Positions 1,494-18,894 of a stretch of 61,950 bases of DNA are shown here, one piece after another; position 1 is the first letter of the stretch, and each line of letters opens with the position of its first letter. The position numbers were made by a program, and so were the translations under genes. The DNA is from Oscillospiraceae bacterium (GTDB lineage: Bacteria; Bacillota; Clostridia; Oscillospirales; Oscillospiraceae): assembly GCA_009783555.1 (NCBI GenBank), contig WRDH01000012.1, positions 1 to 61,950 on the forward strand, in the 5' to 3' direction. The notes below the pieces were generated by a model. That model was not told the DNA's origin. It searched no databases and saw only the letters and a program-made list of their open reading frames with translations.

Positions 1494-1547
1494 ACACGAG
1501 GACGGTTCATCTGTCTTACCAGAACACGGGGACGGTTCATCTGTCCT
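1494..1547. repeat. two tandem half-copies of the GGGGACGGTTCATCTGTC repeat
   Basis: Two direct copies of the dispersed element core (GAGGACGGTTCATCTGTC and GGGGACGGTTCATCTGTC) lie head to tail between the lipoprotein gene and gatD. The second copy runs into the gatD stop codon (1546-1548). The same core occurs in murT, gatA, upstream of gatC and downstream of phoR. Confidence 0.85.
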
Positions 1548-2283
1548 ACAGTACCGCGAGTGCAGACTCATATGCTTTTTGCTGATACTCAAAAAACATA
1601 TCATCCCTCTTAATCGACTCACCTACAAATTCTCCTGCGATAATATCTGCAAAATAACTCAATAACGGGGGATTTCGCACAAGAACAGGACCTGTCAGGT
1701 ATGTGCCCAGCTGGTTCTTGTACTTAATGCCTTCTGTACACGCTGGATAACCTGCGCCCTCACGCGGAAAAACCGAAAACGGACGTTCTATATCACCTTT
1801 TTGTTCACCACCGGCGCGGTTAATAAAACCAATAACCTTATCGGTCAAAAACGAGCACTCACACAAACAATCCTCTGTAATACGAGTGTTCAACTGCACA
1901 GTCTCAAAATCAAGCAGCCCCATCATTTCATGCCGGACACCGCCGGAGTCCGTCACAGCCTGCCCGAACAACTCATGCGAGTTCCCCGTTGCAAGCATTG
2001 GCACCTCGGCATTTATCCGCTCAGTCAACACATCCTTGTACCGCATTAGATCACGCATACAAGCAAGCTGACTGCGCTCCGTACCGCTCCCGATATAAGT
2101 AAAGTCGGAATTGTCAAAGTCTATATCATCCCCGACACTCTTTCTATCAATAATAACCTCACACCCGCGATAAACAAGCTCGCGTTCCAAAGCTGCAACA
2201 TTACCCCAATCACCATAAAGATTCATAAGGTCAGGATATAAGTACAGGATTTTTATTTTCTTTAGCGTGTTATTTTTGTTCAA
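1546..2283 (-). CDS. gatD: GatD-like class I glutamine amidotransferase subunit with catalytic Cys and His replaced
   Basis: GatD normally hydrolyses glutamine and passes ammonia to MurT, which amidates the D-Glu of lipid II. The chosen start is TTG at 2281-2283, seven bases after GAGGAG. Family blocks are clear: YPDLMNLYGDWGN, YIGSGTERSQ, GLLDFETVQLNTRI, GFINRAGG and YKNQLGTYLTGPVL. The nucleophile elbow, normally AICGGYQLLG, reads ATGNSHELFG, so the expected cysteine is Gly100. The catalytic His block GTYLHGP reads GTYLTGP (Thr197). Glutaminase activity is therefore unlikely as read. It sits 43 bases downstream of murT on the same strand, as in canonical murT-gatD operons. The fold and pairing are secure; the loss of glutaminase chemistry is inferred from motif alignment. 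Confidence 0.85.
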   Translation of the reverse strand: MNKNNTLKKIKILYLYPDLMNLYGDWGNVAALERELVYRGCEVIIDRKSVGDDIDFDNSDFTYIGSGTERSQLACMRDLMRYKDVLTERINAEVPMLATGNSHELFGQAVTDSGGVRHEMMGLLDFETVQLNTRITEDCLCECSFLTDKVIGFINRAGGEQKGDIERPFSVFPREGAGYPACTEGIKYKNQLGTYLTGPVLVRNPPLLSYFADIIAGEFVGESIKRDDMFFEYQQKAYESALAVL

Positions 2284-2326
2284 ATTACTTACTCCTCGAA
2301 CTCTACCTACCATTACTATATATCAT

Positions 2327-3784
2327 TTATTGTTTTATGTACAACGCTTTTAGCAACTTCGTTTTATCCGAAAAACACGTTACCGCATAAATGCTTCCAC
2401 TGCCATTTCTGTCTAAGCATACAGATAAACCGCTTAGGTCAGCGACATATTTAATCTTCGTTTGGTCAACCGCAGACATCGCAAACCTTGCAGCCAACTC
2501 ATTTACATACCGACCCGCAAGAATTATACACTTGACATTATCATCTGCCAGCAGATCAAAATCGATATCCCACAGCCATGAAGTCTCACTCGTATAATAC
2601 TTACGGCTTATTGCATCGACCAACACTATAACAGTACAAGGTTTCTTCTGCTGAACAATCCACGAAAGTGAACAATCATACGCAAAAGAATTTTCATGCT
2701 TTGACAATAACAAAAGACTATCACTGCCGCCAACAGGCAACGAAATCACACGCCCGCCGGTAAGCTCGTAATTATCCAACGCTTTCACAGAGTCCGAAAC
2801 ACTCACTCCTACCGCTTCAGCAACAGCAACAGCAGCGCAATAATTATATGCGTTTGTAATGCTTGGCTGCTTGATTTTTAAGGCAAGACAGGGGGACGGT
2901 TCATCTGTCCTGAGCTTTGTTTGCAAGGATTTATTACAAGACAGATGAACCGTCCCCCTGTCTTGTATCGCAACCTCAACATCAGGCTCATTTCGCTTCA
3001 ACCTGCAAGACGAACAACTATAGCTGCCATAATGCCCGGCAATGCGATACTTATAAACCATACGCGCTTTACATACAGGACAAAATGCGCCATCATCGTA
3101 CATCCCCATGCGCGGTGGAGCAATATTGTCGGGACTGACTCCAAACCATGAGACAAGACAAGGGGACGGTTCATCTGTCCTGAGCTTTGTTTGCAAGGAT
3201 TTATTACAAGACAGATGAACCGTCCCCCTGTCTTGTGTCTCACCCGACCAAAAAGCCAATGCAGCAACATACGGATCATCCGCATTCAATACTAGTTGAA
3301 CTCCCTCCCCTGCCGCTTCTATAGCCTCCCTCAAACAATCCTCGACAAATTCAGGATGACCGTTGCGGGTCAACTGGTCACGGCATAAATTCGTCACCAG
3401 CAAAACAGTCGGACGCACCTTTTTAAAAATCCACTTAGCGTACCGCTCGTCGCACACCATGACGATTGTATCACGCTTGACCTTACCGCTAAAAGAGGCA
3501 ATACGAAGAAGAAGTGTAGCAACACCCTCAGTCTGGTTAGAACCTTCATAATTCCAGCCAACATTTCTCCCGTTCGCCTTCAAAACACGCACAATCAGCT
3601 CAGAAGTCGTAGTCTTCCCGTTTGAGCCGGTAACAGCAATTATCATATCCGGCAAGCTCAAACACCCAAGCACATCCGGAAACAACCTAAGTGCAACCTT
3701 GCCGGGTAAGCTGCTGCCCTTGCCTACACGCTTACCTAAAAAATACAGCGTTTTACATATAAAAACGGCTAAAAAAACCTTCAC
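2327..3784 (-). CDS. murT: MurT-like lipid II isoglutaminyl synthase subunit with two in-frame repeat insertions
   Basis: This Mur-ligase-like ATP-dependent subunit amidates the alpha-carboxyl of D-isoglutamate in lipid II, with GatD. The start is GTG at 3782-3784 behind AAAGGA. Seen in order: the P-loop VTGSNGKTTTSELI (about residues 52-65), NYEGSNQTEG, a four-cysteine zinc ribbon (CPVC..CSSC, about 234-262), then a DUF1727-like C-terminus with SWLWDIDFDLL. Two nearly identical peptides, each containing RGTVHLSCNKSLQTKLRTDE, interrupt the protein at about 184-210 and 274-300, one on each side of the zinc ribbon. They are the in-frame translations of palindromic repeats at 3151-3240 and 2885-2965. 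The C-terminal KNPAG motif is absent (KHENS), and the D-x-SWxWD motif reads E-T-SWLWD. MurT identity is strong; activity is uncertain. Confidence 0.88.
   Translation of the reverse strand: MKVFLAVFICKTLYFLGKRVGKGSSLPGKVALRLFPDVLGCLSLPDMIIAVTGSNGKTTTSELIVRVLKANGRNVGWNYEGSNQTEGVATLLLRIASFSGKVKRDTIVMVCDERYAKWIFKKVRPTVLLVTNLCRDQLTRNGHPEFVEDCLREAIEAAGEGVQLVLNADDPYVAALAFWSGETQDRGTVHLSCNKSLQTKLRTDEPSPCLVSWFGVSPDNIAPPRMGMYDDGAFCPVCKARMVYKYRIAGHYGSYSCSSCRLKRNEPDVEVAIQDRGTVHLSCNKSLQTKLRTDEPSPCLALKIKQPSITNAYNYCAAVAVAEAVGVSVSDSVKALDNYELTGGRVISLPVGGSDSLLLLSKHENSFAYDCSLSWIVQQKKPCTVIVLVDAISRKYYTSETSWLWDIDFDLLADDNVKCIILAGRYVNELAARFAMSAVDQTKIKYVADLSGLSVCLDRNGSGSIYAVTCFSDKTKLLKALYIKQ
2885..2965. repeat. 81-bp palindromic element inserted in frame in murT (copy 1)
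   Basis: Perfect 25-base inverted arms (AAGACAGGGGGACGGTTCAT continuing to CTGTC, and the complement ending in GTCTT) flank an asymmetric centre containing TGAGCTTTGTTTGCAAGG. The length is 81 bp, a multiple of three, and the reading frame of murT crosses it without a stop. Its centre is identical to the second copy about 270 bp away. Confidence 0.93.
3151..3240. repeat. palindromic element inserted in frame in murT (copy 2)
   Basis: Same element as at 2885-2965, in the same orientation and the same reading frame, with one substitution in the left arm (AGACAAGGGG instead of AGACAGGGGG). The flanking AGAC/GTCT bases extend the palindrome beyond the shared 81 bp. Confidence 0.93.
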
Positions 3785-3820
3785 AAACGCACCATCCTTT
3801 GAATACCCTTGCTCGCATCC

Positions 3821-3849
3821 ATTGTATACTGTATGATTAATAAAGTAAA
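3821..3849 (-). promoter_or_regulatory. candidate sigma-A promoter for murT-gatD
   Basis: On the minus strand TTTACT is followed by a 17-base spacer and TACAAT. This would start transcription about 30 bases before the murT GTG codon. Confidence 0.5.
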
Positions 3850-3979
3850 TAGGTGGAACAAAATCGCACGCTCTGCGTCATGATACAACTCGACTACTTT
3901 ACAGCAAGCTTCGACACAAAGATATTAACATTTCACCATTTGTTAACATCTTAACCATCTTTTTACAATATTATTCATA

Positions 3980-4007
3980 TTGACACATGTTATATTCATG
4001 TTTTACT
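3980..4007 (+). promoter_or_regulatory. possible promoter for the chemoreceptor gene
   Basis: A perfect TTGACA at 3980-3985 is followed 16 bases later by TTTACT, a poor -10 box, about 100 bases upstream of the ATG. No flagellar sigma-28 consensus was seen. The inverted repeat TTTAC/GTAAA overlaps the proposed -10. Confidence 0.3.
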
Positions 4008-4111
4008 CAAGGTAAACATGAGTTTCGACGCATTAACAGAGAGCATTACTAACCATAACCGGTTACACACATTCTAAAAATAATTTATTAAACGAGAGGT
4101 AGGTATATTTT

Positions 4112-5896
4112 ATGAAAAACATGAAAATCCGTGCGAAACTGTTCACCGGCTTTATTTTTGTAACCATTCTCGGAATACTGCTGGGCGTGGTCGGCATCGT
4201 GTCCATATCAATGATACGGACACGAACAGAAGATATCGCATCATTGCAAGAAGTAAGCAGCGGAGCCTCAAGTGTACTCAATGCGCACTACATCTGGAGA
4301 CACAACCTCACTGAAGCAGTGCTGACCGGAGGTGATTTTACCGGATCTCTCGATCCCAACGGATGTGCTCTCGGCAGGTGGCTTGCAAGTGATGAAGCAA
4401 GAAGTATAACAGATCCTGAAATCTTAGACCTTTTACGGCAGACGGATGCCCCCCACCGTTTTATCCATACCGAAGCTGCTTTAGTAGTTGCGAGTATTGA
4501 AGAAGGTAATCTTGCAGAGGCAACACGGCTTCTGGTAGAGGCTATCCTTCCAAGGACACAGGAGGTCATCTCGCTCCTGACTGATGTAGAAACGCGGTTC
4601 GACGATATTATAGACGGGTTGAATCTTGAAATACTGGATCTTGAGTCTGTTTTCATCTATATAATCATTGGTGTTATCGCAGTAGCCGCGGTTATAAGTA
4701 TGTTCCTGGCATTTTATATATCAAACCAGATCAGCAAACCACTTGCTCCGCTGACTGCGTTTATGACCAAAGCCGGCACAGTCGGTGACCTTACCCTCCG
4801 TCCGGAAGATGTGGCGGTCATCGCAAAGTTTGCGGAAGCAAAGGATGAAATAGGGCAAACCATCGGCAGTTGCGCCACTTTCGTCAAACATGTTACTGAT
4901 ATTTCCGAGCAGTTGGCAAGAATTGCAAGCGGAGACCTGACCACCGAAGTAAAATGCCTGTCAAACGATGATGCCTTAGGTGTAGGGCTGCGAACGATGG
5001 TTGACAGTATGAACGATATGTTCAGCGAAATCAACGAATCCTCCGCACAAGTCTCCTCCGGCTCAAAACAAATCGCGGACGGTGCTCAATCCCTTGCACA
5101 AGGCTCGACTCAGCAGGCTGCCACAGTTGAAGCTCTTTCAAAATCCATTGTTGAGATAGCAGAAAAAACAAAAGATAACGCTGAAATGGCAAACAGAACT
5201 GCTACTTTGGCAAATACAATCATGCAAAACGCACAAAAAGGCAGCGGTCAAATGGATGAAATGACAGCAGCAGTGCGAGAAATCAATCAGGCAAGCCAAA
5301 GCATCAGCAAGGTCATCAAAGTCATCGATGACATCGCATTCCAAACGAACATCCTCGCACTCAATGCTGCAGTGGAAGCGGCACGTGCAGGTCAGCACGG
5401 CAAAGGCTTCGCCGTTGTCGCTGAAGAAGTCCGAAACCTCGCCGCCAAGAGCGCGGAAGCCGCAAAAGATACAGGCGGGCTTATTGCTAACTCAATGGAG
5501 AAGGCCGAACTCGGTGCGCGTATAGCGGACGACACCGCTGCCAGCCTCACCGAAATCGTATCCGGCATCAACGAAAGCAACCAGCTCATAACAGAAATAG
5601 CCGGAGCTTCTGAAGTGCAATCAGAAGGTATAGCAGCAATAAATATTAGTATCGACCAGGTCGCTCAAGTCGTCCAGCAAAACAGCGCAACAGCAGAGGA
5701 AAGTGCTGCCGCTTCGGAAGAAATGAGCGGACAGGCGGATACACTCCAACACCTCATCTCCCGCTTCAAGTTGAAGTCAAGCGGCAGCTTTAACAGCCTG
5801 CCATCGGCAAGACCCCCGCAGCACAACACTCCCGCCGTAGTGGAGGATCATAGCTATACAGGACTGGATGACACCTCAGGCTTTGGCAAATACTAG
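4112..5896 (+). CDS. methyl-accepting chemotaxis protein with CZB-like extracellular sensor
   Basis: This 594-residue transmembrane receptor would signal to a CheA-CheW kinase complex, not encoded here. The RBS GAGAGGTAGG lies eight bases before the ATG. TM1 is at about residues 11-32 and TM2 at about 182-204. The extracellular part has a His near 58 in HYIWRHN, a C-x-L-G-x-W block (CALGRWL, near 84) and H-x-x-x-H near 115-119. These are the spaced residues of chemoreceptor zinc-binding (CZB) domains, which are more often cytoplasmic. HAMP and a DNA-like MCP_signal coiled coil follow; the hairpin tip [17 protein letters not shown] is near 411-430. The end carries no CheR-docking pentapeptide that I recognise. 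The receptor call is certain; the ligand, zinc or a redox/oxidant cue, is inference. Confidence 0.95.
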
Positions 5897-5913
5897 TCAC
5901 ATATATCATCTAT

Positions 5914-5958
5914 ATCCGGGAAAGCAAAAGATCACCTCTTGTTTTCCCGGATTTTTTC
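5914..5958 (+). terminator. intrinsic terminator after the chemoreceptor gene
   Basis: The stem TCCGGGAAA pairs with TTTCCCGGA and is followed by TTTTTTC. It lies 18 bases after the stop codon and faces the convergent PsiE-like gene. Confidence 0.85.
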
Positions 5959-5982
5959 TTTGAGTTTCTGTAAATATTATTT

Positions 5983-6390
5983 CTATATATCTTGTATATC
6001 CTTCCAGGAACTAAGCAAGTTAACCCCAAGCAAAACTTTCTTGATTGCGAATAGGCCTGCTATTGCCAAAACACCGATTAGCAGGTCTAATGTCCTTTCG
6101 TGATAAACGACCATTTGGCGCGCAATGGCAAAGAGCAATACATCCACAACCGATTCCGGCGTATGTTTTATCAGCATTTTTGTAAACTCAACGCCGATTA
6201 CGAGGTTAAGGGTTACTGACAAGATCCCGGCAAACTCCATTGTTAAAATCCCAACCGGAAACCCGGTCAAATCAAAAGAAACTTCAATAATCTTAATGAC
6301 AACAATGACCAACAATACCAATGCAATAACAATTTCTATAGCTTTCGCAACTTTCTCAAGATAAATAATCCATTTTTTCATTCCCCTCAT
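5983..6390 (-). CDS. PsiE-like small integral membrane protein
   Basis: The product has 135 residues and about four hydrophobic segments (near 16-36, 44-66, 76-92 and 100-120), with the conserved-looking stretch ARQMVVYHERTLDLLIGVLAIAG. The length, topology and R-x-x-x-x-Y-H pattern resemble the phosphate-starvation-inducible PsiE family, whose molecular role is not established. It is the last gene of a minus-strand operon behind a double-receiver protein (seven bases apart) and a large hybrid kinase, so it could be a membrane effector of that pathway; that is inference. No Pho box was seen near it. The first ATG directly follows GAGGGGGT, and an in-frame ATG three codons later is equally possible. 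Confidence 0.65.
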   Translation of the reverse strand: MRGMKKWIIYLEKVAKAIEIVIALVLLVIVVIKIIEVSFDLTGFPVGILTMEFAGILSVTLNLVIGVEFTKMLIKHTPESVVDVLLFAIARQMVVYHERTLDLLIGVLAIAGLFAIKKVLLGVNLLSSWKDIQDI

Positions 6391-6397
6391 ACCCCCT

Positions 6398-7180
6398 CTA
6401 TTTTATATGCCGTTCTATTTTACTTCGCAGTACTTCCATCTCAAATGGCTTTGCAATGAAATCGCATGCGCCTAATTCAACTGCTACGCTTATATTATCA
6501 AATGTACCTTCGCTTGTCATAAATATGACAGGCGTGTCTTTATGTTCAGGAAATTCACGAATGATGGCAATAAGATCAAATCCACTTATCGACGGCATCT
6601 TATAATCTATCAAAAACATATCCGGAGATATGTCCCGTAACAGCTTTGACAGCTTTTCCGGCTTTGGCAGCGTATATACCTTGTATTTAACGTGGAGCAT
6701 AGAGTGAACTGCCCGTAATATATCCGGTGCATCATCAACACCAAGAACTATACGCTTTGAGCTGCTGGATTCACCATAACTGTTATCCTCCGTATCGTTT
6801 CCGCCGGCAGGGTTTAGCAATTTTTCGATATGTTCAACCAAATCCGGACCGTCAAAAGGCTTCGTTATAAAACCCGCCACACCGAGCTTTGAACCCTTTA
6901 TTACGCTTTCTTTATCGTTTGAAGCCGTAAGAAAAATTACCGGAATCTTTGCATAACGCTCGTCGCTTTTAAGATGCTTTAAAGCTTGAAAGCCATCAAT
7001 CACAGGCATCTTTATGTCAAGAAGTATCAAATCCGGCGAAAAAAGTTCAAGAACTTCAAAAAGTTTATAAGCGGAAGATAAAGGGTAGACCTCGTAAGAA
7101 TCTTTAAGGATAGCCCGTCCTTGCATACGGCTTGAATTATCATCGTCAACAAGCACTACCTTTTTTCGTTTATTAATCAT
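6398..7180 (-). CDS. response regulator with two receiver domains and no output domain
   Basis: The 260-residue protein is two CheY-like receiver domains joined by a short Ser-rich linker. REC1 (about 6-125) has the acidic pocket VDDDN, phospho-acceptor LLDIKMP, T in FLTAS and K in TKPF. REC2 (about 143-260) has VDDAP, LIDYKMP, MTSEG and AKPF. Both sets look functional. With no DNA-binding or enzyme domain, it probably acts by protein contact or as a phosphate relay or sink. It lies 35 bases downstream of the gene for a hybrid kinase that ends in an HPt domain, the natural phosphodonor. The next gene downstream is PsiE-like. Confidence 0.92.
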   Translation of the reverse strand: MINKRKKVVLVDDDNSSRMQGRAILKDSYEVYPLSSAYKLFEVLELFSPDLILLDIKMPVIDGFQALKHLKSDERYAKIPVIFLTASNDKESVIKGSKLGVAGFITKPFDGPDLVEHIEKLLNPAGGNDTEDNSYGESSSSKRIVLGVDDAPDILRAVHSMLHVKYKVYTLPKPEKLSKLLRDISPDMFLIDYKMPSISGFDLIAIIREFPEHKDTPVIFMTSEGTFDNISVAVELGACDFIAKPFEMEVLRSKIERHIK

Positions 7181-7215
7181 AAACTAAGACAACTCCTTTC
7201 ACAGAACCATCCAAA

Positions 7216-10200
7216 TCATAAAATCATCGTTTCGACAATTTTATCAACGATTTCATCAAAATTCATCGACTCAACATTTTCACAGATCCACTGAACAAGA
7301 CCATCATCATCCTCATATTGATATCTTGTCATCTCCTCCATAGCTGCATCCACAGCATCCATATCGTAGGCGTTACACGCTGCTGCCAGAGCGGAAAGCG
7401 CAGCTTTATCCGGCTTATCCTTTATTGGTTTTTTGGTTAATGAATCATAGGTTTCCAGCAGACCCTCAATATCATCAATAAGGTTTTTTACTACTTTAAT
7501 GAATGATTCATTTTGCTTCTTAATGTAGCCGAACTCAAAAGCCTTCGCTGCCCTCTCCAAATCTGATGCTAATCTGCCGACTGAATCCGCGCAGATTCCG
7601 TAGCTTGACCCTTTGATACTGTGGACCGATATTTCATAATTATACAGACCGTTTTCTGTCACATTAGCAATCGGTTCAAGCAGGTTTCTCGTATTTATCA
7701 TAAAAGACCGCAAAACACCGATATATACTTCTTCATCACCGCCAAACCTCTCTACACCCAAATCATAATCCAGGCTGGTTATCTCTTTTCCGCTGAAAAC
7801 CCTCTCGGATGTTCTATGAGGCTCTTCCCGGACGCTCTGAGACTCTTTCGGAACTTCAGTGATTTCCATCATTTTCTCTTTATCTTGTTTGCGAATCCAC
7901 TGCCTGATGACTGCATCAAGCCTGGCAATGTCTATAGGCTTTGACAGAAATGCTTGAAAACCTTTACTGAGAAACATTTCTTCATTTCCAACAACTGCAT
8001 TTGCGGTCAGCGCGATAATCGGGAGATTTACGGCATAATCGGTTCCCAGTTCACGTATATGCTGTGTAGCTTCAATCCCGTCCATTCCGGGCATCATTTG
8101 ATCCATGAAAACCGCGTCATATTTAACACGCCCTGCATCAATCAAATCGATTGCCTTCTGCCCGCTGTCTACACAATCTATTTGCATTTGATATGGCTTC
8201 ATAAGCCCCTTTGCCACATCCAGATTTGTTTGATTGTCATCAACAATAAGTACATGCGCATATGGAAGACTGACACGCTTGAGAGTCATTTCTTTTGCAC
8301 GTCTGCCGTCCATATAGCTGAAACTGTTAAGGCTTGCAACAATATCGGGACCGATAACAGCATCGTCAACAAACTTCTGCTTAAGCCTTGCGGTAAATAC
8401 ACTGCCTTTTCCGTATTCGCTCTCTACAGATATTGAGCCGTCCATCATCTCACAAAGCATCTTAGCTATCGGAAGACCCAAGCCTGTACCTTCAATCATC
8501 CTGTTTGCATTTGTATCCAATTGCGCATAATCGTCAAATAATCTAACCAGATCGCTGCGCTTGATGCCTTGGCCCGTGTCACCTACTTCTATTGTCAGCC
8601 ATACGGTATCGCCCTCTCTTTCGCAACTTATCCCGAATCTAACCTCACCTTTGTCTGTATATTTTATAGCATTTGACAAAAGGTTATTCATGATTTGATT
8701 CAATCGCAGTTCATCACCGTAAAGGATTTCATATATATTCTCGCTGATGTTCAGCTTCAGTTTAATGGGTTTTTCACCTATCCGCAGAAGGTTTTGCGTG
8801 ACGGTATCATTAATAAGACTCGCTATGCTGTACTCAACCGGCACAAGATCAAGCTTACCTGACTCGATTTTTGAAATGTCGAGAATATTGTTAACGAGAC
8901 CAAGAAGTGTTGTTCCCGCATTATGTGCTTTAACCAGATTTGATCGTATATCTATGTCGATATTGTTTTTTTCAAGACTGAGCCATGTGAGACCTATGAT
9001 AGCGTTAAGAGGCGTACGCATTTCATGACTCATTGTCGCCAGAAAATCGCTCTTGGCGTTATTTGCTCTTTGTGTTTCAATTAATGCCGCTTCAAGCTTT
9101 TCTGCTGCTTTTCTCATATTAAGCGTCATTTCGTTACGTACGATGGCATTGGTTATAAGCAGGCAGCCGGAAAGTAGCGAAGCAGCGACCTCTTCGGAAA
9201 ACACATTTTCATTATAACAGTTATCGCAGCTCACAAAACCCCAAAACTCATCCTGCACATATACCGGTGCGGCAAATATGGATTTTACTCCGTGTTCCTT
9301 CATCCGCTCTTGTTCGAGCGGCGGCAAATCTCGCACTACTGAGTTGACACACTCACCGCGTTTAAATAGTTGTTCGAATTTTGGGAGGTTATCTTCATAT
9401 GCAAGATTCTTTAACAAATCATCTTTACTGCGCAAGAAAACACTTGTAACCCACTCGTATTCGAGGGAAAAGTGCAGCTTTCCGTCTATTATACTGTTTT
9501 TCCACATACGGAATCTGCTGGCCTTTACGGCTTTTCCCATCATGCCCATGCATATTTGCAAGTTATCTTCAAACTCATCAATTTCCGATTGCAGTAATAT
9601 GTTCGCAGCCGTATTCATGTTATCGAGCAGCACGGATTTCTGCTGGATTTCACGCATCATTTCTTTCTGCTCACGCAAATCACGAATATATCCGGCTACG
9701 GCAAAATCATCATCATACGCAACGCGGACAAGAGTTACTTCCGATGGTATCGGGATGCCATCCGATGTTTGGTGCATCCATTCAAACACATTCTTGCCAT
9801 CTTCAAATGCTTTTTTTATCTTCGTCGGTGCTACCTCCGACGAGCGGGAACCGTCAGGTTGAAAATCCGGCGAAAGGTCATGGAACCGGTTTGCGTAATC
9901 TACTTTGTCTTTCATATTAAACAATCGTACCGATTCCTCATTACAGTCAAAGATACGGCTGTTTTTATCCCAGAGATTGATAACAATAGGCGATGTATCC
10001 AGCAACAACCTCGTACGCTCATGCGCTTCATGTATTTGAACGGCTTGCATGCTGCGGTTTATGGCACTGGCAAGCATACTGCTGATTGAGCTGATAATAC
10101 TGATCTCGTCCTCTGCAAAAACTTCCTCCAGATCGCAATTTTCAATACTCAAAAATCCCCAAAACGTTCTTTTGATAAACATGGGGATTACCAATACAGC

Positions 10201-11168: not shown

Positions 11169-11191
11169 AAGTATGTTTAGTTATTTACCCT

Positions 11192-11551: not shown

Positions 11552-11561
11552 TTCTACCCTC

Positions 11562-11759
11562 CTATTTGTACGGAATCATAAGCTTGATTGCGGCTTCATT
11601 TGTGACATCGGCATAACCTGTTTTACGCAGGCCTCTCTTGCGCTTTGTCGTCTTCTTGTTGAGAATGTGGTTTTTATACGCGTGAGCGCGTTTAACCTTC
11701 CCGGTTTTAGTGAGGCTGAATCTCTTCTTCGCCCCGCTATGTGTCTTGATTTTTGGCAT
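11562..11759 (-). CDS. rpmI: 50S ribosomal protein L35
   Basis: The 65-residue product has the L35 signature [14 protein letters not shown], followed by [16 protein letters not shown]35 is a small basic protein of the large ribosomal subunit. It sits between infC and rplT, the standard order. The C-terminus IKLMIPY is normal for the family. Confidence 0.98.
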
Positions 11760-11882
11760 AACTAATTATCTCCTCTTTGAATGTTCTATACAAAAATTCT
11801 CTTGTCGCTTAGATGTATCAGAATGACATGCAATGCCATCCCGAACAAAACTAAGAATTTTGTTTTCGGTGTAAAACACCTA

Positions 11883-12404
11883 TCAGTGTTTTGTTTGCTT
11901 CGGTGTTAAGAACAATGACATATGTCTGCCGTCGAGCTTCGGGTTTTTATCTACGTTCCCGACCTCCGCGCATTCCTCGGCAAACTTTACCAGCAGCTTT
12001 TCCCCGATGTCCGTGTGTGCCATCTCTCTGCCCCTGAAACGTACTGTTACCTTGAGGCGGTCGCCTTCTTTCAGGAATTTTAGCCCGTTTTTCAGCTTAA
12101 TGTTAAAGTCGTTTATGCCGATACTCGGCGACATACGTATTTCCTTTACCTCTACGATATGCTGGTGGCGTCGCACTTCCTTCTCCCGCTTTGCCTGTTC
12201 ATAACGGAACTTGCCGTAATCCATGATTTTGCAGACAGGCGGCTTGGAGTTCCCTGCGATCTTAACAAGGTCAACCTCTTTCTCGACAGCGATTTTCATC
12301 GCGTCTGCCGACGACATGATGCCCAGTTGTGTTCCATCCTCGTCGATAAGACGAACTTCACTGTCGGTAATCTCCTCGTTAATTTGATAGTTTACGTTGC
12401 TTAT
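11883..12404 (-). CDS. infC: translation initiation factor IF-3, probable ATA start
   Basis: IF-3 binds the 30S subunit and proofreads start-codon choice. The product shows INEEITDSEVRLIDEDGTQLG at the N-terminus, DYGKFRYEQAKRE in the middle, and EIRMSPSIGINDFNIK and VRFRGREMAHTDIG in the C-terminal domain, at normal length (about 173 residues). The start is the interesting part. A GTG at 12411-12413 is in frame but is itself part of the ribosome binding site GTGAGGTG, while ATA at 12402-12404 lies six bases after that site. Unusual AUU/AUA/AUC starts are an established feature of infC, because IF-3 discriminates against them and so controls its own level. An annotation starting at the GTG would be three codons too long. 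Confidence 0.96.
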   Translation of the reverse strand: MSNVNYQINEEITDSEVRLIDEDGTQLGIMSSADAMKIAVEKEVDLVKIAGNSKPPVCKIMDYGKFRYEQAKREKEVRRHQHIVEVKEIRMSPSIGINDFNIKLKNGLKFLKEGDRLKVTVRFRGREMAHTDIGEKLLVKFAEECAEVGNVDKNPKLDGRHMSLFLTPKQTKH

Positions 12405-12430
12405 AAAAAACACCTCACTTCAATTTTCCA

Positions 12431-12459
12431 AAACAAAGACGGATGCGTAAACACCCGTC
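12431..12459 (-). terminator. leader attenuator hairpin before infC
   Basis: On the minus strand GACGGGTG pairs with CATCCGTC (one G-U pair, six-base loop) and is followed by TTTGTTTT. It is about 140 bases downstream of the promoter and 27 bases before the infC start, the position expected for a ribosomal-protein (L20) leader attenuator. Control by L20 is inferred from other Bacillota. Confidence 0.65.
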
Positions 12460-12601
12460 AAACAATAATACCTCAATGGTATCTTGCCACCTAACATTTA
12501 GGTTTTGAACCACAACTCGCTATACGCGGCAGGGTGAGGACGGGGTTACCGTTCTGCTTACAATATGCGCCACAAGTGGCAATCCACCGATGACAATCGC
12601 A

Positions 12602-12630
12602 ATGATACACTGTATCAGTATATATGTCAA
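12602..12630 (-). promoter_or_regulatory. consensus sigma-A promoter of infC-rpmI-rplT
   Basis: On the minus strand a perfect TTGACA (12625-12630) is separated by exactly 17 bases from TATCAT (12602-12607). Transcription would start near 12595, giving a leader of about 190 bases with small hairpins (such as CCTAA/TTAGG) and the terminator-like stem at 12431-12459. Confidence 0.8.
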
Positions 12631-12637
12631 GAAATAT

Positions 12638-14818
12638 TTACCACAACCGCTCAAATTCACCGGTGTCATTATCGCTGTCGGTTATGTAAAGAACACCGTT
12701 TACAATCTCAAACGAGAATTTATATTCAAACCCTTGACCATAATCACTAATTACCGTAAGTTCATTTCCATTGACAGACCATAGACCAAATTCATCATCA
12801 GCCATTACAATGGCATTCTCATCAAAATAAACAAGCTCTGACCACCAAAAGAAGTATGTACCCACACCGCCGGAGAACGACCAGGCACCTAATAGTTCAT
12901 GATCTATCAGATCCGGATCTGTAATACCCGGAGGTGGTGGAGGATCAACAGGAGGAGGAGTCCCGTGATCTGGCGGATCAATCCACGGTACGTCCATATA
13001 GTCGCCGAACCCTAAGAAATCTTCAAATCTCTCAAGAAGTGTTTCTCCCCAATCAGCAATATTAATAAAGTTAACTTCCTCTATCCTGCCTGCGCTGTTT
13101 GATGCTGAAATTGTCAAAGACAAGCTCTCATCCCAAAACGAATCTGTAAACGGGTCATCAATTTCAAGTCTGAAGCCATCACTGTTTCTTGTATAAACAC
13201 CCGACAGAATCGTTTCAGAAGACCTATCCTCTACGTATGACAATGTAAAATTCCCTCTGTCTGTCCAACTGAGAGTTAACTCACCGGTTTCGTTATCTGA
13301 CCAACGGTCATCAGTGGTTCCTCTAAACACCACTTCACTACCGTGCGAGGTTTCTCTCATTTCCCATTCAAGAGTAAAAGACATACGATCTCTGCCTGCA
13401 CCGACATTCATCTCAAAAGTCCAAATGTCGGTCGCCGATGCGCCAAAATCAACTGACATATCAAAAAGTTCAACTTCTCCCTCATATGCAAGGTCGGTAC
13501 CTATCTCAATCCGCAAAAGCCTGTTATTGCTGCCAATGTAAAATGTTACTGTAATTTCGCCGCTTAAGCTGCGGGTAAAGCTTCGTACCTCACGGCGCAT
13601 TTCACGAATAAAATCATCATAAGAGGTGTAAAAGAAGCCTAGATCGGAAATATTTGACTCAAGCATTGCTCGTATGTTTTCGTCATTTTCAAGAATATCA
13701 AAAAACTCTTCAAACAAATCGGCTATATCACGGTCGGTAATAATAAAATCGATTTTTTGCGCTCTTACACTATTACCGCCTGACATTATATCAATTCTCT
13801 CGGAAGTTACATCAAGACGTTGTACAAAATCGCCGAGCAGTTTTCCATACTCTTCCGAAAAAGCCTCCGTATCATCGCTGCCTCTTAAGAAATCGGCAAG
13901 CATTTCAACAGCATTAACAATCTCGTCGGTTTCCGTGCGGTCTAAATCCAGCACACGCGCAAAAGAACGAAAATCATCTTCAAATGTATCAAAAACAATA
14001 CCGTAGTAATTATTGTCAACTTGCCTCAGACGTGCAGCTGCCACATCCCTGTTAAGATATACATCCAAGTCCATACTGATGTTAAAAACGGTCAATCCGA
14101 CTTCAAGCGCATATTCTCCGCGCCTTCCGTCAGAATGGAGCATGACAGAGCCGCGGGTTTCACTCCAGAGGTTTCTGTGATCAAAATCTACAGATACCGA
14201 TCCGTCTTGCAGACTTTCAAACAATAACCCAAACAGCTCAAGTGGTGTGCCCTCTAAACGCTCTTCGATGTCGCTTCCGACATTTGACAGTGCCCTGAAC
14301 ACAGTTGTCGTCGGAGAAGAAAGAAAAACCAAAAAGTATATCAATAAAGCAGTTGCAATCAAAGCAACCGCAGCAACAACCGGCACGATGATTTTCCACA
14401 CCTTCTTAGATGGCTTGGTATTGTGCGGTATTTCAGGCGGTGGTACAGGTGGCTGTTGATATGGCTGGTACTGCTGATATAGCGGGTTTTGTTGATCAGG
14501 CGGACTTTGCGGATATGGCGGGTTCTGCGGGTACGATTGATTCTGCGGATATACAGGCTGTATAACTTGCGGGTCTGTTTGTTGATAAGGCGGTTTAAAT
14601 GCAGGCGGTTCAAGCACAATAGGAGCATCATCTGCTTGCGGAGACTCTTCATTTTCAGAGATTTCATCTGCTTGCGGAGTTTCAATTTGCTCAGATGCAC
14701 GATTCCTTTCCGGTGTTTCTTCTTGAACAACAGCGTCAACATATTGCAATACTGCTCCGCATTTTCCGCAAAACCTGCTCCCGGGAGTAACACTTGAACC
14801 ACAACTATGACAAAACAT
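12638..14818 (-). CDS. zinc-ribbon membrane protein with large extracellular domain
   Basis: The 726-residue product begins with a double zinc-knuckle, MFCHSCGSSVTPGSRFCGKC (C-x2-C and C-x2-C). A cytoplasmic Glu-rich then Pro/Gln/Tyr-rich linker with repeated YPQNP-like units runs to about residue 140, followed by one transmembrane segment at about 147-170. The remainder is extracellular: a long region with SVSVDFDHRNLWSETRG and many acidic residues, a Pro-rich linker near 640 (PPPVDPPPPPG), and a C-terminal lipocalin-like beta unit (LLGAWSFSGG..YITDSDND). This one-TM layout is common in uncharacterised Bacillota proteins; no enzyme motif is visible. GGGGGAG lies before the ATG. It is monocistronic, just upstream of the infC promoter. 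Confidence 0.8.
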   Translation of the reverse strand: MFCHSCGSSVTPGSRFCGKCGAVLQYVDAVVQEETPERNRASEQIETPQADEISENEESPQADDAPIVLEPPAFKPPYQQTDPQVIQPVYPQNQSYPQNPPYPQSPPDQQNPLYQQYQPYQQPPVPPPEIPHNTKPSKKVWKIIVPVVAAVALIATALLIYFLVFLSSPTTTVFRALSNVGSDIEERLEGTPLELFGLLFESLQDGSVSVDFDHRNLWSETRGSVMLHSDGRRGEYALEVGLTVFNISMDLDVYLNRDVAAARLRQVDNNYYGIVFDTFEDDFRSFARVLDLDRTETDEIVNAVEMLADFLRGSDDTEAFSEEYGKLLGDFVQRLDVTSERIDIMSGGNSVRAQKIDFIITDRDIADLFEEFFDILENDENIRAMLESNISDLGFFYTSYDDFIREMRREVRSFTRSLSGEITVTFYIGSNNRLLRIEIGTDLAYEGEVELFDMSVDFGASATDIWTFEMNVGAGRDRMSFTLEWEMRETSHGSEVVFRGTTDDRWSDNETGELTLSWTDRGNFTLSYVEDRSSETILSGVYTRNSDGFRLEIDDPFTDSFWDESLSLTISASNSAGRIEEVNFINIADWGETLLERFEDFLGFGDYMDVPWIDPPDHGTPPPVDPPPPPGITDPDLIDHELLGAWSFSGGVGTYFFWWSELVYFDENAIVMADDEFGLWSVNGNELTVISDYGQGFEYKFSFEIVNGVLYITDSDNDTGEFERLW

Positions 14819-14916
14819 TATTTTTCTCCCCCATTATCATGTAACGATTATTACGACTCCTTCTATCTCAATATATAATATACAAAAGCTCATAATAATG
14901 CAATAACGAAAATGCT

Positions 14917-14975
14917 CGTCATTGTGGGAATATTTCATCCTCCGCAGAGGTGAAAAGGCTCGACCCGTAATGACG
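14917..14975. repeat. degenerate CGTCATTG...AATGACGG repeat
   Basis: Outer CGTCATTGTGGG and CTCGACCCGTAATGACGG match the ends of the repeat at 11092-11168, but the centre has diverged. It lies between the zinc-ribbon gene and rmuC. Confidence 0.6.
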
Positions 14976-14987
14976 GATAGAATGTGA

Positions 14988-16337
14988 TTAATCACCTAAT
15001 TCATCATCAAGCCCCTCATCATCGTCGTCTTCAAAAGCCTCCAACATCACCGGAACTGCAGCTTCTTCCAACTCATTAACATCAACACCTGCATCCAGCA
15101 CCTCAACATTTCGCAGCTTCCTGTTGATCGCCTTAGTTCTTGTCCCGACTATTTCGCCGATTGTTTTATCTGCGGTTTGAATTTGCTTCTGCGCCTTTTC
15201 GAGCATGTCGCCAAACTTGATGAACTCTGACTTCACTGCACGTAAAGTGTTCCATACATCCAGTGACCGTTCTTCTATCGCAAGAGTCTTGAATCCCATT
15301 TGATACGAACTTAAGAGCGCGGCAAGCGTTGTAGTTCCAACGGCAATGACCTTGAACTTCGTACGCAACTCCTCGAACAAGGCGACATTTTGCACTACCT
15401 CGGCATAAAGCCCTTCGGTGGGTAAAAACATGAGCGCAAAATCCGTGGTTTTCGGCGGCATTATATACTTATCGGCAATCTCCTTTGCGGAAACGCGGAT
15501 TGCTTGCGCCAGCGACTTTCTGGCGTCCTTTATCTCATCCTTATCATCGGCATCAACCAAGCGGTTGTAATCCTCAAGCGGAAACTTCGAGTCAATCGGC
15601 ATCAGCAACGGTTCATCGCCGGGACCGGGAAACTTTACAGCAAACTCCACCCGCTTGCCGCTGTCAATTTCAACATTTGCAACGTATTGCCCCGGTGCAA
15701 GAATATCGGATAACAGTTTCTCAAGCCTGACCTCACCATAGGAGCCGCGCTCTTTAACATTCATCAAAGCATTACGCAAGCTCTTGGTATCGGCGGCAAG
15801 ATTCTTCATCTCACCAAGCCCTTGCTGAACACTTTCGAGTTGCTTGCTTACCACTTCAAACGACTGAGCCAAGCGTGATTCCAGAGTTTTTTGCAACTTC
15901 TCATCAACCACTCCCTGCATCTGCTCTAGCCGCTTCTCATTGCTCTCCTGAAGACTCTTCATTTTACTTTCAAGCGTCTCATTGACCTTCTCAATATTCC
16001 CCGCACTATCGCGTTGAATAGAAGAAAGCCTGCTGTCAAGCTGCATCTGAAACTCACGAAGCTGTTTATTGGTTTCCTCGCGGTTGCCCTGCAAAGTAGA
16101 TTGAATACTCTCGGAAATAACACCGAACCGCTTAAACTGCTCGGTGGTATTATCACTAAGCTGCCGCGAAAAACTTTCCTGTTGTCTCGCCTCGTTCTCT
16201 CGCTGCTCATCTTTACTCTTCCGAAGAATCTCAGCAATCCTGTCAACCCCGCTCTTGCTCCGCCCGACAAAAAACAAAACAATAACAACCAAAAGTAAAA
16301 CAGCAATAACAATACTTAACAGCAATTGAATATCCAT
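14988..16337 (-). CDS. rmuC: RmuC-like DNA recombination protein
   Basis: The start is ATG at 16335-16337, six bases after AAAGGGAG; the in-frame GTG upstream lies before this site and overlaps gatB. The product has an N-terminal membrane anchor (about 4-24), a long coiled coil (about 30-190) with Gln/Glu/Ser heptads, then the RmuC nuclease-like domain: RGSYGEVRLEKLLSDIL, PIDSKFPLEDYNRL, MPPKTTDFALMFLPTEGLYAE and TTLAALLSSYQMGF. RmuC limits DNA rearrangement at inverted repeats in E. coli; its PD-(D/E)xK-like core is predicted, not proven. A very acidic tail (EAFEDDDDEGLDDELGD) closes it. It directly follows gatB. Confidence 0.95.
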   Translation of the reverse strand: MDIQLLLSIVIAVLLLVVIVLFFVGRSKSGVDRIAEILRKSKDEQRENEARQQESFSRQLSDNTTEQFKRFGVISESIQSTLQGNREETNKQLREFQMQLDSRLSSIQRDSAGNIEKVNETLESKMKSLQESNEKRLEQMQGVVDEKLQKTLESRLAQSFEVVSKQLESVQQGLGEMKNLAADTKSLRNALMNVKERGSYGEVRLEKLLSDILAPGQYVANVEIDSGKRVEFAVKFPGPGDEPLLMPIDSKFPLEDYNRLVDADDKDEIKDARKSLAQAIRVSAKEIADKYIMPPKTTDFALMFLPTEGLYAEVVQNVALFEELRTKFKVIAVGTTTLAALLSSYQMGFKTLAIEERSLDVWNTLRAVKSEFIKFGDMLEKAQKQIQTADKTIGEIVGTRTKAINRKLRNVEVLDAGVDVNELEEAAVPVMLEAFEDDDDEGLDDELGD

Positions 16338-16351
16338 ACAAAACTCCCTTT

Positions 16352-17776
16352 TCACTCCTCCAGCATCTTTCCCAACAACTCGTTCACCGAACGCGGGTCA
16401 GCTTTACCGGACGTCTTTTTCATTACCTGACCGACCAGAAAACCGAACACTTTTTGGCTCCCACCCTTAAACTCATCCACGCTTTTCGGATTCTCCGATA
16501 AAACCTCTTTGATTGCAGATTCCAAAAGCCCTGTATCACTCACCATTGCTAGTGAGTGCTTTTCAATATACTCATTTGGTTCTGCGTTCTCTTCAAATAC
16601 TGCAGCTAAAACTTTTTTCCCTACAGAGCGGTTTATTTTACCCTCATCGACCAGCATGATTAATGTTGCGAATTTCAAAGCGTCAATGGTAATATTATCG
16701 TCACCTGTATCTGCATCCTTCACGATCGCAAGAAGCTCACCCAAAATCCAGTTCGATACATCTTTTGCTTTGCTAAAATGTTTCATTACACCGTCAAAAA
16801 TATGAGCTAAACTCTGACTGCCTGAAATAATCTTACTATCGTACTCGGGCAACCCAAGCATGGTCGTCAGACGTGCAAATTTCTCATGTGCAGGCTCGGG
16901 CAAAGCCGTACGAACACGTTCAATCCACTCTTCACTTATATGAACAGGCATTATCTCGGGATTCGGGAAATAGCGATAGTCCGCCGCTTCCTCTTTTTCA
17001 CGCATTGAATATGTCATGCCGATATCATCATCCCACCGTCGTGTTTCCTGAATAAGCTCTTCACTGCCTGTCTCCAGAGCATCAATATGCCTTTGAGATT
17101 CATACTCAATGGCTCTTGCAATAGCTTTTAGCGAGTTCATATTTTTAGTCTCCGTGCGCGTACCTAGAGTTTGACACCCCTGTTCCCGAACAGAAATATT
17201 TACATCACAACGCATTGAGCCCTCTTGCATTTTGCAATCCGAAATACCTGCAAAACTAAGCAGTAAACGAAGTTTATCCAGATACTCCGTGACTTCATCA
17301 GCCGTGTTAAAATCGGGATTGGAAACAATTTCAATAAGCGGCACGGACGCCCGGTTGAAGTCGATTAAAGTCATGCGTGTCCGTGGTTCGTGTACCAGCT
17401 TCCCCGCGTCTTCTTCTATGTGGATTTGCTTCAAAGTTATGCGCTTGCCGTTATCAAGCTCCACCCAACCGTTTGTACAAACCGGCGCAAAATACTGCGT
17501 AATCTGATAACCCGTCGGTAAGTCAGGGTAAAAATAGTTCTTTTTATCAAAAGAAATCACCTTCGATATCTCGCAGTTTGTAACAAGCCCCGCCGCAATA
17601 GCAAGTTCAATAGCCCTCTTGTTGACAACAGCAGGCATACCCGGCATACCCGAACAAGCAGGGCAAACATTTTCGTTAGGCTCTGCACCAAACTTCGCCG
17701 AACATGAACAAAAAAGCTTAGACTCCGTCGATAGCTCCACATGAACTTCAAGCCCCATAACTACTTCATATTGCAT
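16352..17776 (-). CDS. gatB: Asp/Glu-tRNA amidotransferase subunit B
   Basis: GatB is the kinase/transamidase subunit that activates Glu-tRNA(Gln) or Asp-tRNA(Asn) and swaps in ammonia. All expected blocks are present over 474 residues: MGLEVHVELST, zinc site C-x-C...CPAC, ISFDKKNYFYPDLPTGYQIT, IHIEEDAGKL, RASVPLIEIVS, GSMRCDVNISV and EEAADYRYFPNPE, plus the C-terminal YqeY-like tRNA-binding tail (FLVGQVMKKTSGKADP). The active site therefore looks intact, in contrast to the GatA encoded just upstream. It overlaps the gatA 3' end by 16 bases, which suggests translational coupling. Confidence 0.98.
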   Translation of the reverse strand: MQYEVVMGLEVHVELSTESKLFCSCSAKFGAEPNENVCPACSGMPGMPAVVNKRAIELAIAAGLVTNCEISKVISFDKKNYFYPDLPTGYQITQYFAPVCTNGWVELDNGKRITLKQIHIEEDAGKLVHEPRTRMTLIDFNRASVPLIEIVSNPDFNTADEVTEYLDKLRLLLSFAGISDCKMQEGSMRCDVNISVREQGCQTLGTRTETKNMNSLKAIARAIEYESQRHIDALETGSEELIQETRRWDDDIGMTYSMREKEEAADYRYFPNPEIMPVHISEEWIERVRTALPEPAHEKFARLTTMLGLPEYDSKIISGSQSLAHIFDGVMKHFSKAKDVSNWILGELLAIVKDADTGDDNITIDALKFATLIMLVDEGKINRSVGKKVLAAVFEENAEPNEYIEKHSLAMVSDTGLLESAIKEVLSENPKSVDEFKGGSQKVFGFLVGQVMKKTSGKADPRSVNELLGKMLEE

Positions 17777-18894
17777 AATAGTTGTGCCTCCAAGATATCA
17801 TCTCGCCCTGTATTTGCAACATAAACTCCTTCAGGTGTCGCAAGCGATGGCAAACCACAGAGCCTTGACAATGTTAGTAAATTATAGAAACTGTTCCATT
17901 TTTCTGTTTGACTTTTTTCTTGTCCTTTGTCATTTGTCATTTGTCCTTTGTCATTTATTATCACATCATACTTATCAAACTCCAAAGAATCACGAATCAA
18001 CCGCCTTAACCTCATCGCCTTGTCGTAATATCGCATATAGTTTTCCTGCGATAACACCATTGCACCAATTACTGCGGCAAGCTTAATATCCTCGCCGAAC
18101 GCCTCTGTCCGGCTCTTTGTATAAAGCTCATGCAAGCCATTGTACCCCTTAGCCCTGTACCCAAACTTTATTCCATCATAACGGCTGATATTATTCCCAA
18201 TCTCCGCACAACAAAGTATCTGCATGATTTGCGGAAGAATTTCAGAGTATTTTTCAGAGTCTCGCTTGCGAGGCTTTAGACAGGGGGACGGTTCATCTGT
18301 CCCCGCATCAGCTGTGTATTCTTTATTATTCGTCATTTGTCCTTTGTCATTTGTCATTTGTCCTTTGTCATTTATCCTTTGAATCATAACCCCATCTTTA
18401 CTATCAAACCCGGTAATCATCTTCAAAACTTCAAACCCAACCACTGGCTTCTTGCAAAGAACGCCAATCTGATCCATAGAAGAAACCGCCGGAATAAGAC
18501 CATATCTTGATACCGACCCATACGTAGGATGAATGTAATAAAGCCCTTGTTTCGCTGCCGCAAGGCTTATCGCACCGATGTAGTCGTTGCACAGGATAAA
18601 ATCTGCTTCGCTATCGGCAAGCAGGCAAGACAGGGGGACAGGTACACTGTCTTGTGTACGCCCAAGACAGTGTACCTGTCCCCCTGTCTTACCGTCCACC
18701 GAACTACCAAACAACCCGTCAACACCAAACTCGCCAACGTCACATCGACCGACAATCTGCACCCCGGCAGCTTCAAGCCGGGTCACGACAGTAGCATCTA
18801 TTGGCGAAATAAAATCTGCAAGCATCTTCGACCCTGCAGTAGCGGGTACACCCTTTTGCATTATCGAACTATCTAATATTGCATTATAACTCAT
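17761..18894 (-). CDS. gatA: GatA-like subunit lacking the amidase triad and carrying repeat insertions
   Basis: GatA normally hydrolyses glutamine with a Lys-cisSer-Ser triad and channels ammonia to GatB. Here the first 70 or so family residues are missing: the ORF starts at ATG 18892-18894 behind GGAAGG. The Lys block KDNICTKGV reads DSSIMQKGV, the Gly/Ser loop GGSSGGS is absent, and the nucleophile block TDTGGSIR reads NDYIGAIS (Ala108). Other family blocks survive: KMLADFISPIDATVV, PTYGSVSRYGL, SSMDQIGVL, ISRYDGIKFGY, ELYTKSRTEAFGEDIK and the C-terminal LCGLPSLATP. Four repeats are translated within it (18627-18690, 18331-18376, 18278-18303, 17920-17956), yet the frame stays open for 377 codons. 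It is best read as a structural or pseudo-enzyme subunit; a recent pseudogene is the alternative. Confidence 0.88.
   Translation of the reverse strand: MSYNAILDSSIMQKGVPATAGSKMLADFISPIDATVVTRLEAAGVQIVGRCDVGEFGVDGLFGSSVDGKTGGQVHCLGRTQDSVPVPLSCLLADSEADFILCNDYIGAISLAAAKQGLYYIHPTYGSVSRYGLIPAVSSMDQIGVLCKKPVVGFEVLKMITGFDSKDGVMIQRINDKGQMTNDKGQMTNNKEYTADAGTDEPSPCLKPRKRDSEKYSEILPQIMQILCCAEIGNNISRYDGIKFGYRAKGYNGLHELYTKSRTEAFGEDIKLAAVIGAMVLSQENYMRYYDKAMRLRRLIRDSLEFDKYDVIINDKGQMTNDKGQEKSQTEKWNSFYNLLTLSRLCGLPSLATPEGVYVANTGRDDILEAQLLCNMK
17920..17956. repeat. TTTGTCA/TTTGTCC heptamer repeat in gatA (copy 1)
   Basis: Tandem seven-base units (TTGTCCT, TTGTCAT) are translated on the minus strand as INDKGQMTNDKGQ. 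The same array occurs at 18331-18376. Heptamer arrays of this kind resemble short tandemly repeated repetitive sequences of other bacteria. Confidence 0.85.
18278..18303. repeat. half-copy of the GGGGACGGTTCATCTGTC element in gatA
   Basis: Holds AGACAGGGGGACGGTTCATC and continues to TGTCCC, one arm of the element found in murT. It is translated in frame as GTDEPSPCL, the same peptide that ends the two MurT insertions. Confidence 0.88.
18331..18376. repeat. TTTGTCA/TTTGTCC heptamer repeat in gatA (copy 2)
   Basis: Longer array of the same seven-base units as 17920-17956, translated in frame within INDKGQMTNDKGQMTNN. It lies about 30 bases from the half palindromic element at 18278-18303. Confidence 0.85.
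18627..18690. repeat. 64-bp perfect palindrome (GGGGGACAGGTACACTGTC variant) in gatA
   Basis: Perfect 28-base inverted arms, AAGACAGGGGGACAGGTACA continuing to CTGTCTTG and its complement, enclose the loop TGTACGCC. It shares the AAGACAGGGGGAC end with the murT elements but has a different arm centre. Translated in frame (about residues 69-90), it occupies the place of the GGSSGGS loop of active GatA. Confidence 0.92.

What the first reader, a model, noticed from the sequence alone, without database searches (positions are those of the whole stretch)
1546..18894. Two unrelated glutaminase subunits, GatD and GatA, both appear to have lost their catalytic residues in one genome segment
MurT/GatD and GatCAB both need ammonia released from glutamine by a dedicated subunit. 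Here the GatD elbow AICGGYQLLG reads ATGNSHELFG (Cys to Gly100) and GTYLHGP reads GTYLTGP (His to Thr197). GatA has KDNI replaced by DSSI, no GGSSGGS loop, and GGSIR replaced by GAIS. The synthetase partner GatB keeps its zinc site and IHIEEDAGKL. GatD is class I GATase and GatA an amidase-signature enzyme, so the losses are independent. One explanation is that the cell lives with high free ammonia and has relaxed selection on glutamine hydrolysis; another is that a separate amidohydrolase feeds both complexes.
Basis: partly seen in the sequence, partly recalled or inferred. Interest (0 to 1): 0.8.

Follow-up and report, generated by a model that had tools for sequence, protein, structure and literature searches.

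The report
Bacterium that dropped glutamine-splitting enzymes
Two enzymes in this bacterium have lost the parts that split glutamine to release ammonia, and most of its other enzymes of that kind that could be checked have lost theirs too, which suggests that the cell builds its molecules from free ammonia instead.

Summary
In detail: GatD lacks Cys and His; GatA lacks Lys, cis-Ser and nucleophile; one amidase gene was found in the genome (92% complete). But neither is a fresh loss. GatA belongs to a conserved non-glutaminase clade (GatA*): none of 79 readable rows keeps the Lys (74 have Asp/Glu), and close pairs are under purifying selection. gatB follows in 78 of 80 loci, an aspartyl-tRNA synthetase precedes in 63 of 80. 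GatD belongs to a separate Cys-to-Gly clade; the same change (C94G) in S. aureus abolished glutamine use but not ammonia use. Elsewhere in the genome PurL's glutaminase is dead, GuaA has none, CarB lacks CarA, PurF's glutamine site is altered; GlmS, GltB, AsnB and PyrG were not found. Best reading: GatCA*B makes Asn-tRNA and MurT/GatD amidates lipid II with free ammonia, in a lineage whose nearest named relatives live in termite hindguts. Rival: an asparaginase-like protein, in the cluster of 21 of 80 GatA* loci and 0 of 23 canonical ones, feeds GatB as in archaeal GatDE. Against: 10 of 11 genomes of the genus keep a class I domain, and G111 keeps an intact PurL. Nothing biochemical was tested.

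The parts
1546..2313 (-). gatD, class I GATase-like subunit without catalytic Cys (Gly110) and His (Thr207)
2327..3784 (-). murT, Mur-ligase-like partner; P-loop GSNGKTTT and the CPVC...CSSC zinc ribbon present as read by eye
2885..2965 (-). 81-bp palindromic repeat copy read in frame inside murT (residues 274-300)
3155..3235 (-). second copy inside murT (residues 184-210), 80 of 81 bases the same
16352..17776 (-). gatB, intact transamidase/kinase subunit
17761..18894 (-). gatA*, non-glutaminase GatA (Asp8 for Lys, no GGSSGG, Ala108 for Ser)
18627..18690 (-). 64-bp inverted repeat (28-bp arms) read in frame in gatA* where the GGSSGG loop would be
18975..19250 (-). gatC, 91 aa, ends DGYFQVPATID
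   Evidence: assignment by reading, motif recalled

Best explanation
GatA here is a member of GatA*, a conserved clade of GatA that keeps the amidase fold and its gene partnership with gatC and gatB but has given up glutamine hydrolysis. With a second, gat-associated aspartyl-tRNA synthetase, GatCA*B turns Asp-tRNA(Asn) into Asn-tRNA(Asn), probably the cell's route to asparagine; the ammonia comes from the cytosol and not from glutamine. GatD likewise is a scaffold that lets MurT amidate lipid II with free ammonia. Both fit a wider switch in this lineage, in which glutaminase domains were disabled or deleted while synthetase partners stayed. Shown: the sequences, the clades, purifying selection, gene neighbourhoods, the genome-wide pattern in G000 and G008. 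Inferred: ammonia as donor, Asp-tRNA(Asn) as substrate, the ammonia-rich gut habitat of this genome.
For: GatA*: 0 of 79 readable rows keep the Lys (44 Asp, 30 Glu, 5 other), 0 of 81 have GGSSGG, no row keeps two of the three catalytic residues, 10 of 10 canonical rows keep all; one branch, support 100; dN/dS 0.06-0.20 in the 25 most similar pairs. gatB after gatA* in 78 of 80, AspRS before it in 63 of 80; 5 of 9 tRNA genes in the 80 loci are tRNA-Asn, with U1-A72. Four GatA* genomes (G028, G001, G107, G048; 91, 83, 79, 59% complete) have no AsnRS over cut-off. Neither AsnA nor AsnB found in G000, G008, G111, G028; AsnA in G003, G022, G052, G137. One of two AspRSs of the own genome groups with the gat-linked ones (97*). 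S. aureus GatD C94G kept ammonia-dependent activity (PMC3266927, passages). No PF00117 in G000, 14 of 14 controls ring; PurL Cys and His lost, GuaA 335 aa, CarB without CarA; NadE short in G000, G008, G111, G028, G052, G137 but 660 and 646 aa in G003 and G022.
Against: No biochemistry. PurF keeps its nucleophile Cys. Of 11 genomes of the genus, 10 have one to four PF00117 hits; the two of G008 look unlike amidotransferases, the rest were not read except G111's CarA. G111 keeps CarA and an intact PurL glutaminase. G022 and G133 combine dead GatD with canonical GatA, so the losses do not track each other. 19 of 81 GatA* rows keep a Ser at the nucleophile column. The window's gat cluster, like those of L179-L185 and L187, has no AspRS beside it. 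The genome is 92% complete. Missing PyrG is unexplained. G028 also holds a lone canonical gatA (6% contamination).
Confidence: 0.6

Rival explanations
1. A separate amidohydrolase supplies the ammonia: an asparaginase-family protein hydrolyses Asn or Gln and feeds GatB, as the asparaginase-like GatD feeds GatE in archaeal GatDE.
For: An asparaginase-family gene lies in the gatA* cluster in 21 of 80 loci: 24-50 bp after gatB on the same strand in seven (between match ends), before aspS on the same strand in eight, opposite strand in five, 1.1 kb after gatB in one; 0 of 23 canonical stretches (Fisher p 0.003; rows are related and stretch lengths differ). Catalytic-type motifs TGGT in 20 of 21, HGTDT in 21 of 21. 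Best models are type I asparaginase and archaeal GatD, both below cut-off in 6 of 6 tested.
Against: None in the window nor in the loci of the window's close clade (L179-L189). 59 of 80 loci lack it. Own genome not searched. It would not explain the loss of PurL, GuaA and CarA glutaminases.
Confidence: 0.2
2. GatA* and GatD are vestigial or have other duties; the complexes no longer amidate, and asparagine comes from uptake with AsnRS doing the charging.
For: G000, G008 and G111 have GlnRS and AsnRS over cut-off; gatA* and murT of G000 carry in-frame repeat inserts; MurT scores far below its model.
Against: Purifying selection on gatA* and third-position excess in gatA*, gatB, gatD and murT between G000 and G008; gatB intact; four GatA* genomes without AsnRS.
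Confidence: 0.12
3. The active site has been rebuilt with other residues (for example the Cys two residues before the conserved Asp of the old SDTGG stretch), so GatA* still hydrolyses glutamine or another amide.
For: Cys at that column in 49 of 81 rows, the window's included; acid at the Lys column in 74 of 79; Arg for the Gln carboxylate in 80 of 81.
Against: Cys absent in 32 of 81; the Asp that binds the Gln amide absent in 81 of 81.
Confidence: 0.05

Closest known systems
Bacterial GatCAB tRNA-dependent amidotransferase (GatA structures 3h0l, 2df4)
   Same: Fold and length of the core (profile against 3h0l E 5.3e-90), gatC-gatA-gatB order, GatB above cut-off
   Different: Ser-cis-Ser-Lys site and Gln-amide Asp gone, about 60 N-terminal residues shorter
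S. aureus MurT/GatD and its C94G mutant (PMC3266927, passages seen)
   Same: Cys to Gly at the same place; murT next to gatD
   Different: Natural and clade-wide here, and His is lost as well
Archaeal GatDE (asparaginase-like GatD)
   Same: Asparaginase-family gene beside gatB in 21 of 80 relatives
   Different: GatA* is retained; no such gene in the window; models below cut-off
Ammonia-using single-domain NadE (PMC3376133) and vertebrate carbamoyl phosphate synthetase I (recalled)
   Same: Amidotransferases that use free ammonia without, or after losing, a working glutaminase
   Different: One enzyme each; here several enzymes of one genome
tRNA-dependent asparagine synthesis in Bdellovibrio and Deinococcus (PMC4206432, passages seen)
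   Same: GatCAB kept beside AsnRS and GlnRS when AsnA and AsnB are absent
   Different: There GatA is a normal glutaminase (recalled)

Membership tests
Glutamine-dependent GatCAB | amidase-signature GatA with Lys, cis-Ser and nucleophile Ser | tested here: not met
Glutamine-dependent GatCAB | gatC and intact gatB beside gatA | tested here: met
Glutamine-dependent GatCAB | glutamine hydrolysis coupled to tRNA amidation | not testable with these tools
   needs enzyme assay
tRNA-dependent Asn synthesis | no AsnA and no AsnB | tested here: met
   no hit with E. coli AsnA and AsnB pieces in G000; 92% complete genome, single-sequence queries
tRNA-dependent Asn synthesis | a second AspRS of the gat-linked type | tested here: met
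   G000 C29 groups with gat-linked AspRSs, 97*
tRNA-dependent Asn synthesis | AspRS charges tRNA-Asn (non-discriminating) | not testable with these tools
   needs enzyme assay
tRNA-dependent Asn synthesis | tRNA-Asn with U1-A72 | tested here: inconclusive
   five tRNA-Asn genes in four relatives' loci have it; own tRNA-Asn not found by a strict pattern
MurT/GatD | GatD with catalytic Cys and His | tested here: not met
MurT/GatD | murT next to gatD | tested here: met
   also in G008 and G137
Archaeal GatDE | asparaginase-like subunit beside the GatB/GatE subunit | tested here: not met
   none in the window; present in 21 of 80 relatives' loci

The most novel reading that the evidence does not exclude
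This bacterium has given up glutamine as a nitrogen donor altogether: the amide and amino transfers that remain (Asn-tRNA, lipid II, the PurF and PurL steps, GMP, carbamoyl phosphate, NAD, probably glucosamine by NagB run backwards) use free ammonia, and glutamine is only an amino acid for proteins. GatA* is part of this, its catalytic Lys turned into an acid that may bind or guide ammonium towards GatB.
Probability: 0.35. Interest if true: 0.9.

Novelty: new variant of a known kind. Interest (0 to 1): 0.76.

Why it matters
A 2012 survey (490 to 800 genomes per family) lists no GatABC, CarAB, PurL, PyrG, GuaA or AsnB without a glutaminase part (PMC3376133 Table 1), and argues that free ammonia in cells is typically too low to do without one. 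A lineage that keeps synthetases and drops glutaminases, with relatives in guts where ammonia is high, makes it directly testable why cells channel ammonia from glutamine. GatA*, a whole conserved clade of a translation enzyme without its classical active site, is a clean subject, and the asparaginase-like neighbours raise the possibility that the archaeal GatDE solution arose again in bacteria.

Tried and rejected
Rejected: a recent loss in one genome (both states are clade-wide). Rejected: assembly or reading error (the same residues are missing in separately assembled relatives). Rejected: an intact second gatA in the own genome (92% complete). Rejected: one coupled loss of GatD and GatA (G022 and G133).

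Led nowhere or partial: the tRNA-Asn pattern matched 1 of 11 genomes, so it was too strict. ARAGORN finds only tRNA-Pro in the window. GatD counts come from loci of the 30 best hits among 91 matching genomes, one dropped because a wrong frame was read (L054), so 15 of 29 without Cys is no population estimate. In one search 49 of 150 genomes matched; I read 30 loci, 8 of them GatA* and 22 canonical. One search kept 80 of 303 relatives; the other 223 were not read. One search printed 25 of 309 pairs. G028's PurL was cut by the end of the stretch and is not used. The E. coli AmtB query is a weak probe (about 30% identity where it hit), so its silence in six of eight genomes says little.

Full report
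What is there. The window is one whole contig of 61,950 bases (G000:C12). On its minus strand lie murT-gatD (3784 to 1546) and gatC-gatA-gatB (19250 to 16352). GatD has Gly110 for the catalytic Cys and Thr207 for the His; GatA has Asp8 for the catalytic Lys, no GGSSGG motif and Ala108 for the nucleophile. GatB scores above the cut-off of its family model; GatA, GatD and MurT score well below theirs. PF01425 finds one gene in the own genome.

GatA is one of a clade, called GatA* here. Of 150 family genomes 49 matched; of the 30 loci read, eight are GatA* (G000, G008, G111, G028, G085, G001, G107, G048) and 22 canonical. A scan of named genomes kept 80 of 303 relatives, some of them the same records. 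In the 81 aligned rows (80 and the window's) no Lys remains; 79 rows have a residue at that column, 44 Asp, 30 Glu, 5 other; GGSSGG occurs in none, the Asp that binds the Gln amide in none, and no row keeps two of the three catalytic residues, while 10 of 10 canonical rows in the same alignment keep all three and the Asp. A Ser stands at the nucleophile column in 19 of 81. The Arg for the Gln carboxylate is kept in 80 of 81. The residue roles are from PMC4027206 (passages). On a tree of 29 GatA* and 24 canonical rows one branch with support 100 separates them. dN/dS in the 25 most similar of 309 pairs is 0.06-0.20. The clade's profile matches Aquifex GatA 3h0l over its length, E 5.3e-90.

What GatA* does. 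gatB follows in 78 of 80 loci and an AspRS precedes in 63 of 80. Canonical gatCAB stretches of the same family also have AspRS beside them, 20 of 23, so GatCAB in this family looks dedicated to Asn-tRNA. The window's cluster, like those of L179-L185 and L187, has lost that neighbour. Of nine tRNA genes in the 80 loci five are tRNA-Asn; all five have U1-A72, for two of them after moving ARAGORN's start by one base. Four GatA* genomes, G028, G001, G107 and G048 (91, 83, 79, 59% complete), have no AsnRS over cut-off, so GatB with GatA* is the evident route to Asn-tRNA there; G028 does hold a lone canonical gatA elsewhere. G000, G008, G111 and G085 do have AsnRS. Neither AsnA nor AsnB was found in G000, G008, G111 and G028, while G003, G022, G052 and G137 gave AsnA. 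The own genome has two AspRSs; C29 lies with the gat-linked ones (97*), C20 with the other type. Bdellovibrio sets the precedent for GatCAB kept for asparagine beside AsnRS and GlnRS (PMC4206432, passages).

GatD. Of 29 readable rows from the 30 best hits, 15 have Gly for Cys and 14 of these also lack His; one branch with support 93 splits the two states. S. aureus GatD C94G lost glutamine-dependent but kept ammonia-dependent lipid II amidation (PMC3266927, passages), and with ammonia GatD still had to be present (PMC6085368, passages), which would explain why it is kept.

The rest of the genome. PF00117 gives no hit in G000, with 14 of 14 controls ringing. In 399 family genomes 16 have none: G000, nine of genus g52, four of g5, one each of g92 and g96, so this happened more than once. 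Against this, 10 of the 11 genomes of the window's genus in that search have one to four hits. The two of G008 sit in 480 and 377 aa proteins that look unlike amidotransferases; G111's is CarA. A joined query found in G000 and G008 GuaA of 335 and 332 aa without glutaminase domain, CarB without CarA, PurF and PurL, and no PyrG, GlmS, GltB, AsnB or amidotransferase-type HisH; G003, positive control and partly the source of the query, gave 21 matches and G022 18. In PurL the catalytic Cys is Gly and the His is lost in G000 and G008; G111 keeps both. The dead domain still evolves under constraint (differences 0.587 at third, 0.146 at second positions). PurF keeps its Cys, but the Arg of GHVRY is Lys in G000 and G008 (Asn in G111) and AHNG reads AFNG in G000 and G008; G028 keeps both (roles of these residues recalled). 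NadE is short (249-258 aa frames) in G000, G008, G111, G028, G052 and G137, and 660 and 646 aa in G003 and G022; G008's match counts two TGA stops. NagB, a glutamate dehydrogenase and one glutamine synthetase of 708 aa (GSIII type by its length) are present in G000.

Habitat. The nearest named relatives are Oscillospiraceae MAGs from higher termites: 23 of 80 titles carry isolate codes listed in PMC7024585 (passages), 30 of 80 name a ruminant gut, 27 state neither. High ammonia in termite guts is stated in PMC4675541 and PMC8784593 (passages).

The rival. An asparaginase-family gene lies in the cluster in 21 of 80 GatA* loci and in none of 23 canonical stretches. It is closest to type I asparaginase and archaeal GatD models, below their cut-offs. 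Archaeal Gln-tRNA formation by an asparaginase with a kinase subunit is known from the title of Feng et al. 2005, seen in a reference list. I cannot say whether the own genome has such a gene.

Novelty. The library searches listed no paper that by its title or abstract start describes a non-glutaminase GatA clade or a genome-wide loss of glutaminases; most subscription journals are not held. PMC3376133 (introduction read) lists none without a glutaminase part among GatABC, CarAB, PurL, PyrG, GuaA and AsnB.

Noticed in passing
window 2885-2965, 3155-3235, 18279-18293, 18627-18690, 18954-18968, 23214-23228, 30187-30201: A palindromic repeat built on GACAGGGGGACGGTT (10 half-sites in the window, 0 expected) is inserted in frame twice in murT and in gatA*, and lies between gatC and gatA*. 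G008 carries different repeat-like inserts at matching places of murT and gatA*. It resembles Rickettsia palindromic elements (recalled).
   Followed up: partly
window 17922-17955 and 18332-18372: Heptamer-type tandem repeats (AATGACAAAGGACAAATGAC) read in frame inside gatA* as NDKGQMTNDKGQ.
   Followed up: no
G000, G008, G111, G028, G052, G137: No CTP synthase (PyrG) was found in six of eight genomes, although the query hit G003 and G022 strongly. Where CTP comes from is unexplained.
   Followed up: no
L105 1661-2725 (G111 CarA): CarA of G111 keeps Cys and His but reads HPGAG where HPEA is usual, so the Glu of the triad seems lost; carB lies on another contig.
   Followed up: no
L231, L238, L258: In these three of 80 loci a canonical gatA lies downstream of gatA*-gatB, so both kinds coexist.
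   Followed up: partly
window 30216-43937: An open frame of 4573 aa on the minus strand, not examined.
   Followed up: no
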